A stretch of DNA of 64,000 bases from Simiduia sp. 21SJ11W-1 (GTDB taxonomy: Bacteria; Pseudomonadota; Gammaproteobacteria; Pseudomonadales; Cellvibrionaceae). Below, piece by piece: positions 56,827 to 64,000 of the stretch (its first letter is position 1; every line of letters begins with the position of its first letter). The position numbers and the translations under genes were made by a program. The stretch is taken from positions 3,334,501 to 3,398,500 of the forward strand of contig NZ_CP090959.1 of the NCBI RefSeq assembly GCF_024138675.1, in the 5' to 3' direction. The notes under the pieces are model-generated. The model worked only from the letters and a program-made list of their open reading frames with translations. It was not told where the DNA came from and made no database searches.

Positions 56827-56832
56827 CGAATA

Positions 56833-56877
56833 TGGTAGCTAGAGGCGGACTTGAACCGCCGACCCCAGCATTATGAG
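56833..56877 (-). pseudogene. 3' fragment of a CAT-anticodon tRNA (Met or Ile2), attL
   Basis: From anticodon loop CTCATAA to the encoded CCA, with T-arm GGCGG-TTCAAGT-CCGCC and acceptor strand TCTAGCT. The 5' half is missing: the sequence next to the loop does not pair with the TGCTG stem arm. This is the usual attachment core (45 bp) of a tRNA-targeting integrase. Confidence 0.88.
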
Positions 56878-56996
56878 TTTGCTCCTGGCGGTTTTCCGTA
56901 ATTCTCCCATCTTCACTAAAAGTCTATTTTCTGCTTTAATTTCAGCAAGTTATGTACACTCTTCATCACGCTCACTTTTTGAGCTTCACGCCACCC

Positions 56997-57032
56997 GGTG
57001 ACCCATGGGTGACCCAGAGCCGACCCCAGCAT
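56997..57032 (+). repeat. short direct repeats and second copy of the att core before the integrase
   Basis: GGTGACCC occurs at 56997-57004 and 57008-57015, 11 bp apart (one helical turn). It is followed by GCCGACCCCAGCAT (57019-57032), the same 14 bp as in the tRNA fragment (56858-56871), ending 3 bp before the integrase ATG. These may be arm-type sites for integrase or a directionality factor. Confidence 0.6.
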
Positions 57033-57035
57033 CCT

Positions 57036-58304
57036 ATGACAGACAAAAAAATTCGCTTCACTAAGCAGGTCCTTGAGAACCTAACCTCTCCAGAAAAGGG
57101 ACGTGTTGATTACTACGATACCGGGGTTACGGGATTGCAAATTCGTATATCCAGTAGCGGTCGGAAAACTTTCGCCTTAAGGAAAAAGGTCAATGGCAGA
57201 GCCGTCAGGGTCACGCTCGGTGACTTTCCGGCCATGACCATTGACCAGGCCCGAAGGCTTTGCGCTCACGAAGTGGTTGGGATGTTTGAAGGTATCAACC
57301 CCAATGTAGCCAAGCGCGCTGAACGCGTTAAAGGCGTCACCCTGTCAGAGTGCTTGGATGATTACCTCAGCACCCGCGCAGGCCTGGCTGACAACACGGC
57401 CAAAACCTATCGACAGTCTGTAGAGAAGCATCTAGCAGACTGGCTAAACCGCCCACTGAAAGACATCACACGAGATATGGTATCTCAGCGCCATAAGCGC
57501 ATTGCACAACAATGGCCGGTAGCGGCAAACAACGTCATGCGGCACCTGCGAGCGCTGTTCAATTTTGCGGCTGGTCAATATGAGGACGTGGCGGGCCAAG
57601 CAATCTTCACTGACAACCCCATTAAGCGCATATCCCACAACCGGCAGTGGACACCTGAGAAGCGCCGACAAAGGATTATTAAAACTGGCGAATTGCCTGG
57701 CTGGTTTCAGGGAGTGCAGGAGCTAAGACAGGAAGTGTTGGGGGATATGAACGAACCCGCCTATGTTGTGGCGGACTACTTAGAGTTCATATTACTGACT
57801 GGTCTACGCCGTGACGACGCCCTCTGCCTGCGCTGGGACCAAATTGAACTGGATACAGCAACTATGCACCCGGTGATCCATAAAAAGCAAAAGGAGGTGA
57901 TTCCTCTCCCCCTTTCACACTACACGCTTGAACTGCTAAAGCGCCGACACCAGCAAAAGGTCAACGAATACGTCTTTCCCGGGCGCTATGGCATTGGTCG
58001 ATTTGACGACCCCAAGAAAGCCATCGCAAAGGTAGTAGAGGCCACAGGGATACAGTTTAGCTCTCATGACCTACGGCGGACCTTCATCACAGTCGCCGGC
58101 AGCCTGGACCTCTCCGGCTACGTAGTGAAAAGGCTGTGCACACACTCGATCAGCGGAGATGTCACAGGCGGTTATATCATTTTTGATGCTGAACGGCTGC
58201 GTGAGCCTGCGCAGCGCGTTGAAGACGCCATTTTGAAACGGGCATGCATCCAAGAAACTGGCGCGATTATCAAATTACCTATCATGCATCATCAGGATGC
58301 ATGA
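57036..58304 (+). CDS. P4-family tyrosine integrase (DUF4102 N-terminus)
   Basis: 422 aa from ATG 57036; the frame extends to 56952, but the DUF4102 arm-binding domain begins MTDKKIRFTKQVLENL. The SAM-like core-binding domain (VTLSECLDDYLSTRAG...) follows. The catalytic domain has the first Arg in TGLRRDDALCLRW, the HxxR pair SHDLRRTF, a third-box His in CTHSISG and the nucleophile Tyr in TGGYIIFD. All expected residues are present, although the usual LGH is CTH here. Integrases of this family use the tRNA 3' end as attachment site, matching the fragment 160 bp upstream. Confidence 0.93.
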   Translation: MTDKKIRFTKQVLENLTSPEKGRVDYYDTGVTGLQIRISSSGRKTFALRKKVNGRAVRVTLGDFPAMTIDQARRLCAHEVVGMFEGINPNVAKRAERVKGVTLSECLDDYLSTRAGLADNTAKTYRQSVEKHLADWLNRPLKDITRDMVSQRHKRIAQQWPVAANNVMRHLRALFNFAAGQYEDVAGQAIFTDNPIKRISHNRQWTPEKRRQRIIKTGELPGWFQGVQELRQEVLGDMNEPAYVVADYLEFILLTGLRRDDALCLRWDQIELDTATMHPVIHKKQKEVIPLPLSHYTLELLKRRHQQKVNEYVFPGRYGIGRFDDPKKAIAKVVEATGIQFSSHDLRRTFITVAGSLDLSGYVVKRLCTHSISGDVTGGYIIFDAERLREPAQRVEDAILKRACIQETGAIIKLPIMHHQDA

Positions 58305-58340: not shown

Positions 58341-59171
58341 ATGACCAGGAAATTTAGAGACCCACGTAAATTCTATTCCCTCGCAGAAGCCGCAATACTA
58401 CTTACAGAGAAGCTAGAGATGGAATACACCGTAAAAATAGTTGCACAGCTTTGCAATGAGGAAGAAATTCCTATCTATTGGTATTTCACCAGCCCACAGT
58501 GGGCGGAAACTGTCAAATTACATCAAATACCTACACCCACTGAAACCGGGAACAATCAAGGTGTAAAGCAGTTTTTAGAAATCCAAAATATCTATGGTGA
58601 CGTTAGCAATAACCCTGATACGCAGTTAGAGGGCTATAAATATCAGATAGCACTTAAATACAGCCAACGATTTAGGGAGTACTTGGCCTATTTGGCCACA
58701 GGTATTCCTGCAAAGGATGCAATTGATGGAATGATAGTCAAGGATGATCAGGGGAGCTTGTATAGGCCTGTAATACAACACTGCCAAAGAGATGGAGACC
58801 ACTGGATTCCAGCAGGTTTTGTAGATGCTGAAGAGCGCTTCGTTATTCGAGCTGAAGATCTAGATGATTTTGTACAAAAAGCGCTCAAGGAACAACCTTC
58901 TGATATAACGAACGACAGTCCAACTTTATTAGCTCATCCAGTCAGCGATACAGCACACGCTTACTATGCTCCCGATCTACATATAGCTCTTAATCTGTGG
59001 GACAGCTGCTACAGGCAAGGCACAGCGGATCTCAGCCTAACGCATACAAAAATTGCCCAAATGTGGTTAAAAAACAACCATCCCAATCTGTCCGAAACCA
59101 CCACTAAGCGCATTACTCTCATCACCACACCAGCCCAAAGAAAAAATGATGGTAGGTTCAAAGAGAAATAG
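58341..59171 (+). CDS. unknown element protein (276 aa)
   Basis: Not recognised. Mostly helical, soluble, no signal peptide or membrane segment. The N-terminus (FYSLAEAAILLTEKLEMEYTVKIVAQLCNEEEIPIYWYF) looks like an adaptor seen in integrative elements next to integrases. The C-terminus has YYAPDLHIALNLWDSCY and a basic helical end (IAQMWLKNNHPNLSETTTKRI). The stop codon lies inside the first CGGTGATACC repeat. A regulatory role is possible. Confidence 0.7.
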   Translation: MTRKFRDPRKFYSLAEAAILLTEKLEMEYTVKIVAQLCNEEEIPIYWYFTSPQWAETVKLHQIPTPTETGNNQGVKQFLEIQNIYGDVSNNPDTQLEGYKYQIALKYSQRFREYLAYLATGIPAKDAIDGMIVKDDQGSLYRPVIQHCQRDGDHWIPAGFVDAEERFVIRAEDLDDFVQKALKEQPSDITNDSPTLLAHPVSDTAHAYYAPDLHIALNLWDSCYRQGTADLSLTHTKIAQMWLKNNHPNLSETTTKRITLITTPAQRKNDGRFKEK

Positions 59172-59335: not shown

Positions 59336-59533
59336 ATGGCTACATCGCAACACCCGCAACTACAAACCACAGATCAGGCGGCGCACTTCGTTCAGATCGG
59401 TCCGCGCACCATGGAAAACTGGCGCTGCCAAGGCCGAGGACCACGCTACGTGAAAGTCGGCCGCTATGTGCGATATAGAACGAGTGACCTGCTCGAATGG
59501 TTAGAAAGGCGAACTACAGGAGGCGATCTATGA
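59336..59533 (+). CDS. AlpA/excisionase-like helix-turn-helix protein
   Basis: 65 aa. MerR-like HTH_17 fold: TTDQAAHFVQIGPRTMENWRCQGRGPRYVKVGRYVRYRTSDLLEWLE, with the recognition helix followed by a wing. AAGGAG lies 6 nt before the start. Such proteins act as excisionase or regulator in P4-like elements. Its stop overlaps the next start (ATGA), so the replication genes are coupled to it. Confidence 0.85.
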   Translation: MATSQHPQLQTTDQAAHFVQIGPRTMENWRCQGRGPRYVKVGRYVRYRTSDLLEWLERRTTGGDL

Positions 59534-60048
59534 ACACCTCGCCCAATCGATCGAAAAACAACCAAAAAGCGATTTTTTCAATAACCTTTAGCCAAGAGGA
59601 AAATAACATGGTGCATTTAGAAGTAACCATTTACAAACCAAAGCCGGCCCATCGTAACACCAAAGCCGTTGATCACCGCCAAGCGACTTGCCCCAAGCCA
59701 ACCATCGACCTTAGCTTGGCAAAGCCACCAATAATATTTCGTGTGCTTGATCACTTGCTAAAACATCAGATCTTGGTTGATAGCGAAATGGAAAGACTAT
59801 TTCAAAACAAGAACATCCGTCACGCCTTAAATAGACTGATTGGTCGCCATGGCTTAAACATTGCAAAACTTTGGACGCCACACTTTATTGATGCATCAAC
59901 CAAAAAATGCGGAATACTCATCTATCGCCTCGAGTACGGGTCATATGATCGGGCAAGAATGGTTCACGATCATATGAAACACCGCTACTTGGATTACATT
60001 TTTCGCCGGGTTAACGACCAGATGGGAGTAAATCCAACATGCCACTAG
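59530..60048 (+). CDS. unknown element protein, winged-helix-like core
   Basis: 172 aa from ATG 59530, chosen because a perfect AGGAGG lies 6 nt upstream and the start overlaps the previous stop. The core (PPIIFRVLDHLLKHQILVDSEMERLFQNKNIRHALNRLIGRHG) looks like a small helical DNA-binding domain. It lies between AlpA and primase genes, so a role in replication control is possible. No family recognised. Confidence 0.7.
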   Translation: MNTSPNRSKNNQKAIFSITFSQEENNMVHLEVTIYKPKPAHRNTKAVDHRQATCPKPTIDLSLAKPPIIFRVLDHLLKHQILVDSEMERLFQNKNIRHALNRLIGRHGLNIAKLWTPHFIDASTKKCGILIYRLEYGSYDRARMVHDHMKHRYLDYIFRRVNDQMGVNPTCH

Positions 60049-60440
60049 TAGGCATACTAAACCTACTTAAAAAGGTGCGCCCCTCGGGGCGCAATCGATG
60101 GATGGCCTGCTGCCCAGCCCATGAAGATAACTCACCAAGTTTGTCCATAGCAGTAGGTGGAAACGAAAAAATACTGCTTCATTGTTTTGCGGGATGTCAA
60201 CTTGCAGACATAACTGAAGCAATTGGACTTTCAGTCAGTGACCTTTTCCCCAAAATCACTAACGATCTTGAGTTTAGCAACCGGTTCAAGCATGCCTCGA
60301 ATTTGGCCAATCAGGCTGAGCTCGATGCACTGACATTAATAATCGCCAAAAACGAACTCATGGCCGGTAGAGCACTTAGCGCCGAAGACCAAAAAACTGT
60401 GACGCAGGCCATCGATAGACTAGGGAATGCAATTTTATGA
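60039..60440 (+). CDS. CHC2 zinc-finger primase-like protein, no TOPRIM
   Basis: 133 aa. The zinc site is C-x-x-H (CPAH of CCPAHEDNSPSLSI) and C-x-x-C (CFAGC), as in DnaG/P4-alpha N-termini. The catalytic TOPRIM domain is absent; the chain ends in helices. It overlaps the previous gene by 10 nt and the next by 4 (ATGA). It likely works with the DUF3987 protein as a split primase/helicase. Confidence 0.8.
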   Translation: MPLVGILNLLKKVRPSGRNRWMACCPAHEDNSPSLSIAVGGNEKILLHCFAGCQLADITEAIGLSVSDLFPKITNDLEFSNRFKHASNLANQAELDALTLIIAKNELMAGRALSAEDQKTVTQAIDRLGNAIL

Positions 60441-62071
60441 ACCCCATTCCAGCAAATGAACTCGAAAGAATAGTAACTGGGCTAAATATCAGCGCGGCGA
60501 GCGCAAAAAAAGCTGCTTACATAAACGCACTGGATCGATCTGAAACCAATATTAGCGGCTCGATTCCGGAAACTGATCCCTTGCGACCATGGCCGAGGCC
60601 AAAACCGCTGGTTTCAAAGCTTACTGCAGAACCCTACCCCATCAATGCGTTACCTAAAATTATCCGCGATGCGGTTGAAGAAGTGTCCAACTTTGTAAAG
60701 GCACCCAATGCGCTCGTTGCTGGATCGGCACTATCGGCAATATCCCTTGCCGGTCAATCAATCGCCGAAGTTAAACGTGCAGAGCGGCTTGAAGGGCCCA
60801 CCAGCCTGTATCTTTTAACCATTGCAGATTCTGGAGAGCGGAAATCTACATGCGATGGGTTCTTCACCCAGGCTATCCGAAACTATGAACGGCAGCAGAC
60901 CGAAGCGGTTAAGCCCCAGCAAAAGCACTACCAAGCGTCCATCGATGCCTGGGAAGCTAAGCACGCCGGTATTAAGGAGAAAATTAGACAACAGGCTAAA
61001 AACGACAAACCCACTGATGACCTGTCTGCCAAGCTATTAGATCTGGAAACACAAAAGCCGACCCCGCCTCTACAACCCAGGCTTTTATATGCAGACGCAA
61101 CGCCCGAAGCATTAGCCCACAACCTAGCCAACGGCTGGCCCTCTGGTGGAGTTTTTTCGGCCGAGGCGGGCGCTGTATTTGGCTCGCACGGCATGAGCAA
61201 AGATTCTGCCATGCGCAATTTGGCACTTTTAAACGTACTTTGGGACGGCGGAGCGCTGCAAATTGACCGTCGAACCGGCGACTCATACAGAATCGATAAA
61301 GCCTGGTTAACGGTGGCTCTCCAGGTTCAAGAATCCACCCTTCGCAGTTTTTTTGACAGGACAGGGGACCTAGCGCGCGGCACCGGATTTCTCGCACGAT
61401 TTCTAATCGCCTGGCCTGAGTCCACTCAAGGCAAACGTCAGTTCTCGGAAGCCCCAAAAGAATGGCCTGCGCTAGATAGATTCAATGACCGCATAATCGA
61501 ACTACTGGGACAAGTTAGAAATTCCATTGAAGATCAGCCTGAGGCGCCGGATATACTCACCTTATCGCCAGAAGCAAAAGCAGCCTGGGTAGACTATTAC
61601 AACTCTGTGGAAGGTCAGCTCATGTCTGGCGGACAGCTCTACGATATACGTGATGTTGCCAGCAAGTCTGCCGATAACGTTGCAAGACTTGCGGCACTCT
61701 TTCATCTATTTGAACAAGGAATAGGCCCTATAGGAAAGCGGGCAGTAGAAAGCGCAATACCCATCGCCACATGGCATCTCAATGAGTCACGGCGGTTCTT
61801 CAGTGAAATTTCACTATCGGCAGAACTAACCCGGGCATGCAAGTTAGATTGCTGGCTTATAGACTATTTTGGATCTCAGCACACTGCAGAGATTTCAGCA
61901 CGTGAGGCACAACGCCACGGCCCAGCATCCACAAGAACAAAGGAAGGATTGCTACAAGCGCTCGCCGTTCTCGAGGACCTAGACAGGGTAAGAGTGCTCA
62001 GCAATGGCCGGAAAAAAGCGATAACGATCAATCCTGCATTACTACCCACAAGGCGCGAGGCGGGACACTAA
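60437..62071 (+). CDS. DUF3987 (YfjI-family) ATPase/helicase-like protein
   Basis: 544 aa. A DUF3987 body with the P-loop-like ADSGERKS near residue 130, GGVFSAEAGAVFGSHGM, TVALQVQESTLRSFFDRTGDLARGTGFLARFLIAWP and a C-terminal winged-helix-like end (SAREAQRHGPASTRTKEGLLQALAVLEDL). These proteins replace the helicase half of P4-alpha in many integrative elements. It is the last gene of the replication unit. Confidence 0.88.
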   Translation: MNPIPANELERIVTGLNISAASAKKAAYINALDRSETNISGSIPETDPLRPWPRPKPLVSKLTAEPYPINALPKIIRDAVEEVSNFVKAPNALVAGSALSAISLAGQSIAEVKRAERLEGPTSLYLLTIADSGERKSTCDGFFTQAIRNYERQQTEAVKPQQKHYQASIDAWEAKHAGIKEKIRQQAKNDKPTDDLSAKLLDLETQKPTPPLQPRLLYADATPEALAHNLANGWPSGGVFSAEAGAVFGSHGMSKDSAMRNLALLNVLWDGGALQIDRRTGDSYRIDKAWLTVALQVQESTLRSFFDRTGDLARGTGFLARFLIAWPESTQGKRQFSEAPKEWPALDRFNDRIIELLGQVRNSIEDQPEAPDILTLSPEAKAAWVDYYNSVEGQLMSGGQLYDIRDVASKSADNVARLAALFHLFEQGIGPIGKRAVESAIPIATWHLNESRRFFSEISLSAELTRACKLDCWLIDYFGSQHTAEISAREAQRHGPASTRTKEGLLQALAVLEDLDRVRVLSNGRKKAITINPALLPTRREAGH

Positions 62072-62653: not shown

Positions 62654-64000
62654 ATGGACGTTTTCGAATATCGTGATGCGGTTATACGTGACTACCGCGC
62701 ATTCACTACCAGCTTTGCAAAAATCAAAGCACCAGACATCAAGCAGTACGTAGATGGGCTTTACGAGTCGGGTCAATATTGGCCTGCACCGCTGATCCAA
62801 TTGAACCCGCAGTTTGTGCAGGGGGGCAATGTGGAGCAGTTGGTAGCCGACGGGGTCCTGCAAAAAGAGTGCGCCAATATATTCCGCTTCGGACGTGAAC
62901 AGGGCGGCGCGGGCATACCGGCACAGCTGCACAAGCACCAGCAAGATGCCATCCATATTGCCCAGCGCGGCCAAAGCTATGTGTTAACCACCGGTACCGG
63001 CTCGGGTAAGTCGCTGAGTTACATTCTGCCCATTGTAGATAGCGTTCTGAAACAAAAGGCCCGATGCACCAAAGCAAGCATCAAAGCAATTATTATTTAT
63101 CCAATGAACGCGCTGGTGAATTCTCAACGCGAAGAGCTGGAAAAATTTCTCGGCCATTATGGGCAAGACAAGCCCGTGACCTTTGGCCGGTATACAGGCC
63201 AGGAATCCTCAGAAGAGCGCCATGCAATGGCGGCCAATCCGCCAGACATTATCCTCACTAACTTTATGATGCTCGAACTGCTGATGACCCGGCAGGACGA
63301 GATAGACCGCAAGGTCATGGCCGCCGCCCAGGGCCTGCAATTTCTGGTACTGGATGAGCTGCATACCTACCGTGGGCGCCAGGGTGCCGATGTGGCCATG
63401 CTGGTGCGCCGCGTGCGTGAAGCGCTGAACGAAAACGTCTTGTGCATTGGCACCTCGGCCACCATGGCCAGCGACGGCAATCTGGCCGCCCGCAATGAAG
63501 CCGTGGCCAAGGTAGCCTCCAAACTTTTTGGTGCCCAGGTCAGTCCCGAAAATATTGTTACCGAAACTCTGCAGCGCCAAACGCCCCATGCCAAAAAGCC
63601 TGAGGGTGCAGCGTTGGCTGGCGCACTTAGCGCACCACTGCCAGACGGTAGTGATTTTAAAACCATGCGCGAGCACCCACTCTCAGCTTGGATTGAGCTG
63701 ACCCTGGGCTTGCGCTGGGAAGAGGATCGCTGGGTACGCGCAAAGCCCCAGGCGCTGCGCTGGGCAGCTGAGCAATTGGCGCAAGATACGAGCCTCACCA
63801 TTGATCAATGTGAAGCTGTTTTACGACAGTTTTTGTTAACGGCCTACCAAACTCGTGATGGCAATGGCAAACCGCTGTTTGCGTTCCGTTTGCATCAGTT
63901 TATTTCGGGGGCGAGCAACGTCTATTCCACTCTGGCTCCGGCGGGCCAACGAACCTTTGATGTAACTGGCCAACAATTTTTACCCGGACAACGAGAATAC
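62654..64000 (+). CDS. large DEAD/DEAH-box helicase, defence-type (partial, runs off window)
   Basis: 449 codons are open from ATG 62654 to the last base with no stop. Superfamily 2 motifs: Q-like His95-Gln96, Walker A TGTGSGKS at 113-120, Ia YPMNAL at 149, TN at 202, motif II DELH at 234-237 followed by TYRGRQGADVA, and III SAT at 268-270. The later part has PLFAFRLHQFISGASNVYSTL. These segments are typical of very large helicases with a C-terminal DUF1998/zinc region found in anti-phage islands, such as DruE of Druantia; the C-terminal part and partners lie past 64000. An upstream in-frame stop at 62630 and a weak GGA set the start. Confidence 0.88.
   Translation, partial: MDVFEYRDAVIRDYRAFTTSFAKIKAPDIKQYVDGLYESGQYWPAPLIQLNPQFVQGGNVEQLVADGVLQKECANIFRFGREQGGAGIPAQLHKHQQDAIHIAQRGQSYVLTTGTGSGKSLSYILPIVDSVLKQKARCTKASIKAIIIYPMNALVNSQREELEKFLGHYGQDKPVTFGRYTGQESSEERHAMAANPPDIILTNFMMLELLMTRQDEIDRKVMAAAQGLQFLVLDELHTYRGRQGADVAMLVRRVREALNENVLCIGTSATMASDGNLAARNEAVAKVASKLFGAQVSPENIVTETLQRQTPHAKKPEGAALAGALSAPLPDGSDFKTMREHPLSAWIELTLGLRWEEDRWVRAKPQALRWAAEQLAQDTSLTIDQCEAVLRQFLLTAYQTRDGNGKPLFAFRLHQFISGASNVYSTLAPAGQRTFDVTGQQFLPGQREY

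What the first reader, a model, noticed from the sequence alone, without database searches (positions are those of the whole stretch)
62654..64000. Truncated-by-window defence-type DEAH helicase as cargo of a tRNA-integrated element
The sequence shows an unbroken 449-codon frame with all N-terminal SF2 motifs and the distinctive DELHTYRGRQGADVA and FAFRLHQFISG blocks. I know these from large DUF1998-linked helicases of anti-phage islands (Druantia DruE and relatives). The gene lies at the cargo position of an integrative element, right after the replication module. The genes beyond 64000 could be a known or a new defence system.
Basis: partly seen in the sequence, partly recalled or inferred. 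Interest (0 to 1): 0.78.

Follow-up and report, generated by a model that had tools for sequence, protein, structure and literature searches.

The report
ARMADA Type I–McrBC anti-phage array
The cut-off helicase at the window's edge is the first gene of a seven-gene anti-phage defence array (an ARMADA Type I core plus the McrBC restriction enzyme) carried by a mobile element inserted in a tRNA gene: a real and apparently intact system of a recently described kind, but no new kind.

Summary
The ORF is real. Read past the window it is a 1739-aa SF2 helicase (62654-67873) with DEAD, Helicase_C, MZB/DUF1998 and a C-terminal Vsr/DUF559-like nuclease. Six co-directional genes follow with gaps of -11 to +20 bp: a BrxHII/DrmD-like SNF2 helicase, a PglX/DrmMI-like DNA methyltransferase, a membrane-anchored WYL protein, an SF1 helicase-nuclease, McrB (EVE-like reader) and McrC. 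Genes 1-3 in this order define ARMADA Type I (Bell et al. 2025); a cassette of this kind beside McrBC was also reported (Bell et al. 2024). Defence helicase, and cargo of a tRNA-integrated element, are both right. The element (56829-83556) is one of two in tandem at tRNA-Met, marked by three copies of a 50-bp repeat. Least documented is the WYL plus helicase-nuclease pair between core and McrBC; in a same-family relative a DUF2326-type ATPase and a UvrD helicase fill that slot. Likely action: self-marking by the methyltransferase, DNA degradation by helicase-nucleases, McrBC against modified DNA. Untested.

The parts
62654..64000 (+). Gene 1 (in-window part, 449 codons): YprA/MrfA-family SF2 helicase of ARMADA Type I. 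The whole gene is 62654-67873, 1739 aa, with MZB/DUF1998 and a C-terminal Vsr/DUF559-like nuclease. Genes 2-7 lie beyond the window: 67870-70674 SNF2 helicase, 70695-74738 methyltransferase, 74747-75970 WYL protein, 75979-79302 SF1 helicase-nuclease, 79292-81943 McrB, 81945-83219 McrC, all + strand
63503..63991 (+). Region after RecA1 in gene 1 with the helical insert and the FAFRLHQFISG block
   Evidence: alignment, model (helical; no PDB match)
56829..56878 (+). Left attachment repeat of element 1: 50-bp copy of the 3' part of tRNA-Met(CAT); the other copies lie beyond the window at 83557 and 98022 (the last within intact tRNA-Met 98026-98102, - strand)
56952..58304 (+). Tyrosine integrase of element 1 (Arm-DNA-bind_3 and Phage_integrase)
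59336..59533 (+). HTH_17 protein of element 1, AlpA/excisionase-like in size and place (role inferred)
60039..60440 (+). CHC2 zinc-finger (DnaG-type) protein, replication module of element 1
60437..62071 (+). DUF3987 protein, replication module of element 1

Best explanation
The helicase is the YprA-type helicase-nuclease of an ARMADA Type I system (helicase - BrxHII/RapA-like helicase - PglX-like methyltransferase), extended in one tightly spaced gene row by an accessory pair (WYL membrane protein, SF1 helicase-nuclease) and by McrBC, and carried by a tRNA-Met-integrated element. Proposed action, mostly inferred: the methyltransferase marks host DNA; the two SF2 helicases load on unmarked or ssDNA-containing replication intermediates of the invader, translocate, and the Vsr-like nuclease on gene 1 cuts; the SF1 helicase-nuclease processes further or different DNA structures; McrB reads a modified base through its EVE-like domain and McrC cuts, which covers phages that escape the first layer by modifying their DNA; the WYL protein senses a ligand or regulates. 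Shown here: gene content, order, conserved catalytic motifs, relationships, element borders. Inferred: every biochemical step and the protection itself.
For: Gene order helicase-SNF2-MTase matches the published definition of ARMADA Type I (PMC12458937). The same three genes recur in the same order and strand in all 10 relatives with enough upstream sequence (now and then a small gene lies between) and on plasmids. The tree places it among ARMADA I, sister to G375 with support 100/100. DELHTYRGRQGADVA is identical in 20 of 21 bacterial ARMADA I rows but reads DEAHSYIGSQAAELA in DruE and DExHTFDGAQGxDLA in ARMADA II. PADLOC DruE3 score: 328 bits here, 295 for another ARMADA I, 350 for ARMADA II, 2180 for a real DruE. 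McrBC follows the core in the same-family genome G375 (56/51% identity) and directly in Nocardioides pNOCA01; an association of a 'DISARM-like' cassette with McrBC is published (PMC11090510). Catalytic motifs are intact in genes 1, 2, 3, 5, 6, 7. ARMADA Type II protects E. coli without growth arrest and needs all four genes. DruE, a relative, loads on 3' ssDNA and degrades long DNA (PMC13192584).
Against: No phage test of any Type I system was found in the papers searched; Type II was the type tested. Genes 4 and 5 are absent from the other ARMADA I loci examined, so their membership in one functional unit is not shown; gene 4 has no close full-length relative found. The BrxA-like insert expected in this lineage could not be confirmed by fold. 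Expression as one operon is inferred from spacing only.
Confidence: 0.88

Rival explanations
1. It is a Druantia system (DruE).
For: DruE models are the top PADLOC hits.
Against: The score is 15% of that of a real DruE3 and is spread over fragments; other ARMADA I and II helicases score the same. Signature blocks differ. In the tree DruE joins ARMADA II at the end of a long branch, away from the window protein. No DruH-like gene is seen among genes 1-7; SNF2 and MTase partners are present instead.
Confidence: 0.03
2. It is DISARM class 1 (DrmD, DrmMI, DrmA, DrmB, DrmC).
For: Gene 2 hits DrmD (308 bits PADLOC, 352 bits NCBIfam) and gene 3 hits DrmMI (253 bits).
Against: DISARM splits helicase (DrmA) and DUF1998 protein (DrmB); here they are fused and DrmA matches gene 1 at only 50 bits. 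No DrmC-like (PLD) gene found. NCBIfam's DrmD cut-off (610) is not reached. On pNOCA01 an ARMADA I row and a DISARM row stand side by side as separate systems.
Confidence: 0.03
3. Three independent defence modules happen to be neighbours on one element (ARMADA core; WYL plus SF1 helicase-nuclease; McrBC) with no joint mechanism. This contests only the 'one array' part of the best explanation, not the ARMADA I identity.
For: Genes 4-5 are missing in other ARMADA I loci; gene 5 relatives stand without ARMADA genes next to them in G006, G068 and G355; plasmid ARMADA I loci have other or no accessory genes.
Against: Gaps of -11 to +20 bp; gene 5 is directly followed by McrB also in G459, which also carries ARMADA I genes (53/51% identity); McrBC follows the core in G375 and Nocardioides.
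Confidence: 0.4
4. Housekeeping YprA/Lhr-type repair helicase caught inside the element.
For: MZB domain and SF2 core are shared with YprA/MrfA (6znp).
Against: 1739 aa with a nuclease tail, best relatives all beside SNF2 and MTase genes, inside att borders, methyltransferase partner absent in the three other species of the genus held.
Confidence: 0.01

Closest known systems
ARMADA Type I (Bell et al. 2025, PMC12458937)
   Same: Helicase - BrxHII/RapA-like helicase - PglX-like MTase in this order; Vsr-like nuclease tail; integrase-bearing elements at tRNA genes are described there for ARMADA islands
   Different: Here the core is followed by a WYL membrane protein, an SF1 helicase-nuclease and McrBC in one tight row
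McrBC with a 'DISARM-like' cassette (Bell et al. 2024, PMC11090510, Figure 2 green branch)
   Same: YprA helicase/DUF1998, SWI2/SNF2 and PglX genes associated with canonical NxxD McrB
   Different: Whether the WYL plus SF1 pair occurs in that branch could not be checked; it is not named in the text read
Array in G375 (same family)
   Same: Core at 70/69/57% and McrBC at 56/51% identity, same order
   Different: Middle slot holds an SMC/DUF2326-type ATPase and a UvrD-type helicase instead of WYL and SF1 helicase-nuclease
ARMADA Type II (E. coli plasmid loci L066, L069; Martelella L067)
   Same: Same three protein kinds; a Type II system works without growth arrest in E. coli
   Different: Order SNF2-MTase-helicase-UvrD, helicase about 2110 aa, 20-22% identity to gene 1
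Druantia III DruE
   Same: YprA-family SF2 helicase-nuclease
   Different: PLD nucleases, DruH partner, no MTase or SNF2 of its own; different signature motifs

Membership tests
ARMADA Type I | YprA-like helicase gene first, then BrxHII/RapA-like helicase, then PglX-like MTase | tested here: met
   definition from PMC12458937
ARMADA Type I | Helicase falls in the ARMADA I clade, away from ARMADA II, Druantia and DISARM | tested here: met
   Tree of 27 rows: sister to G375 (100/100) within 14 ARMADA I rows (100/100); ARMADA II, DruE and DrmA lie outside; long outgroup branches noted
ARMADA Type I | DUF1998 (MZB) fused to the helicase, C-terminal predicted active Vsr-type nuclease | tested here: met
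   MZB 1494-1587, DUF559 1673-1719, RPDF and YIDG motifs
ARMADA Type I | BrxA-like helical insert after RecA1 | tested here: inconclusive
   A fairly confident helical domain is predicted at residues about 318-400, but no PDB fold match at E<=0.001
ARMADA Type I | Anti-phage activity | not testable with these tools
   needs a plaque assay
Druantia | DruE-family helicase | tested here: not met
   328 bits against 2180 for a genuine DruE3; signature blocks differ
Druantia | DruH (type III) or other Druantia partner genes | tested here: not met
   No such hit among genes 1-7 in PADLOC
DISARM class 1 | Separate DrmA and DrmB, plus DrmC | tested here: not met
   fused architecture, no DrmB or DrmC hit
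McrBC (type IV restriction) | AAA+ GTPase with NxxD motif plus McrC nuclease partner | tested here: met
   NTAD motif, AAA_5, McrC domain 246 bits, PDI...DTK
McrBC (type IV restriction) | Modified-base reading domain on McrB | tested here: inconclusive
   EVE domain E=2.5e-4, 21.5 bits against a cut-off of 23
[quoted passage not shown]

The most novel reading that the evidence does not exclude
Genes 4-5 form an exchangeable helicase slot of the ARMADA-McrBC array: an SF1 helicase-nuclease with a membrane-anchored WYL sensor replaces the DUF2326-type ATPase plus UvrD helicase of sister arrays, and links the ARMADA core to McrBC in one functional machine with an unmodified-DNA arm and a modified-DNA arm.
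Probability: 0.25. Interest if true: 0.6.

Novelty: new member of a known kind. Interest (0 to 1): 0.35.

Why it matters
In the papers searched only ARMADA Type II was tested against phages. This is a complete-looking Type I copy with conserved catalytic motifs, coupled to McrBC on an element with clear borders. It offers a test of whether a 'cut what is unmarked' layer and a 'cut what is modified' layer act together, and whether the accessory helicase slot is exchangeable. It also adds a gammaproteobacterial-type chromosome case to the published idea that defence islands grow by successive element insertions at one tRNA gene.

Tried and rejected
Druantia and DISARM as homes: rejected by control scores, motifs, architecture and tree. 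Housekeeping helicase: rejected by absence of the partner gene in the genus and position inside att borders. DpdE as identity of gene 2 (PADLOC PDLC02853, 686 bits over the full length): not followed, because the other DpdE models and NCBIfam DpdE score lower than DrmD and no Dpd base-modification genes were seen in the row; probably a mislabelled model (inference). Fold test of the BrxA-like insert: model of moderate confidence (pLDDT 68), no significant PDB match, left inconclusive. Looking for genes 4 and 5 in other ARMADA I loci: gene 5 next to McrB was found once more (G459), gene 4 not.

Full report
What is there. The 449-codon frame at 62654-64000 is real. The window is G000:C1:3334501-3398500 of a single 3.96-Mb contig, so the sequence to the right could be read. 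The frame closes at 67873 and encodes 1739 aa: DEAD, Helicase_C, MZB (DUF1998-like zinc domain, residues 1494-1587) and a DUF559/Vsr-like nuclease tail (1673-1719). Six further genes follow on the same strand with gaps of -4, +20, +8, +8, -11 and +1 bp (the start of gene 4 is taken at ATG 74747): SNF2 helicase 67870-70674, Eco57I/DrmMI-like N6 methyltransferase 70695-74738, WYL protein 74747-75970, SF1 helicase with MTES_1575 nuclease 75979-79302, McrB 79292-81943, McrC 81945-83219. Walker, DEAD/DEAH, methyltransferase and nuclease motifs are intact.

The element. A 50-bp stretch of the 3' part of tRNA-Met(CAT) is found at 56829, 83557 and 98022, the last within the intact tRNA gene. This marks two elements in tandem. 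Element 1 (56829-83556) has an integrase, an HTH_17 protein, CHC2 and DUF3987 replication-type genes and the seven-gene array as its last cargo. Element 2 (83557-98021) has its own integrase and a type I restriction system. In another species of the genus (G370) the same tRNA-Met holds an island like element 2 alone (HsdR 87%, HsdM 92% identical DNA), and no match to the ARMADA methyltransferase was found in any of the three other species of the genus held.

Which family. The block DELHTYRGRQGADVA is identical in 20 of 21 bacterial ARMADA I proteins compared, against DEAHSYIGSQAAELA in DruE and DExHTFDGAQGxDLA in ARMADA II; the FAF[KR]LHQF block behaves likewise. In a maximum-likelihood tree gene 1 is sister to the protein of G375 (same family) within ARMADA I, far from ARMADA II, DruE and DrmA (the long branches of the latter make their own places unsure). 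The gene order helicase - BrxHII/RapA-like - PglX-like is the published definition of ARMADA Type I (Bell et al. 2025, PMC12458937). It recurs in all ten relatives with enough sequence and on plasmids of Roseomonas, Deinococcus, Acidithiobacillus, Nocardioides, Mesorhizobium and Caballeronia; in Natrinema and Planktothrix the order is SNF2-MTase-helicase, as the paper says for many archaea and cyanobacteria. ARMADA I methyltransferase relatives occur in 6 of 295 genomes of the order sampled.

McrBC and the middle pair. Association of a 'DISARM-like' cassette with McrBC is published (Bell et al. 2024, PMC11090510; restated in PMC12458937). Here it is confirmed in G375 and, directly after the core, in Nocardioides pNOCA01. 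What the texts read do not mention is the pair between core and McrBC. In G375 the slot holds a coiled-coil ATPase and an SF1 helicase of UvrD type; the corresponding pair of Zhongshania matches DUF2326 weakly and UvrD_C_2 clearly. In the window's genome it holds a protein with a hydrophobic N-terminal hairpin and duplicated WYL stretches and an Upf1-like SF1 helicase with a nuclease tail. A 53% relative of the latter, again directly followed by a 51% relative of the McrB, lies on a contig of G459, a genome that also carries ARMADA I genes, so the helicase-McrB junction is not unique. Elsewhere relatives of gene 5 stand without ARMADA genes. The supplementary tables of the ARMADA paper could not be read here, so it is possible that such arrays are already listed there.

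How it likely works (inference from relatives). ARMADA Type II blocks phages without growth arrest and needs all four genes and their Walker and NPPW motifs (PMC12458937). DruE loads on 3' single-stranded DNA and degrades long DNA (PMC13192584). By analogy the core marks host DNA and attacks unmarked replicating phage DNA; McrB with an EVE-like domain (E=2.5e-4, just under the Pfam cut-off) and McrC would cut DNA that carries modified bases. Whether the parts cooperate or only travel together is open; I give independent action 0.4.

Verdict. A sound observation with the right general class, the wrong named family and no categorical novelty: an intact-looking ARMADA Type I - McrBC array on one of two tandem tRNA-Met elements, with a little-documented accessory helicase slot.

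Noticed in passing
right of the window: window-scale 83557-98102 (L004, L005): A second element in tandem at the same tRNA-Met, with its own integrase and a type I RM system (HsdM 87294-88913, HsdS-like 88891-90300, HsdR 93979-97188) that brackets a Schlafen AlbA_2/HATPase protein (90330-92210).
   Followed up: partly
L055 (G370:C6:19001-38000): Another species of the genus carries an element-2-like type I RM island alone at the same tRNA-Met; HsdM and HsdR are 87-92% identical DNA while the HsdS region matches only in short pieces, as expected for exchange of specificity.
   Followed up: partly
L008, L009, L010, L015, L060, L063, G400, G419: In these ARMADA I helicases the C-terminal Vsr-like PDF...DG motif is missing, and several of these loci carry an HNH or PIN-like gene after the methyltransferase: a possible trade of fused for separate nuclease.
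   Followed up: partly
L012 9995-15231 and L014 10237-15198: The methyltransferase match is broken into two open frames in both Magnetococcales MAGs at about the same place: an insertion or a split gene.
   Followed up: no
L062 (Nocardioides pNOCA01): A DISARM row (drmD, methyltransferase, drmA, drmB) and an ARMADA I row with McrBC lie side by side on one conjugative plasmid.
   Followed up: no
gene 2, right of the window (67870-70674); PADLOC model PDLC02853: Gene 2 matches this 'DpdE' model at 686 bits over its full length although no Dpd genes were seen in the row; the model may in fact be built from ARMADA-type helicases.
   Followed up: no
58341-59171 and 59497-60048: Two element-1 genes between integrase and replication genes have no Pfam match.
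   Followed up: no
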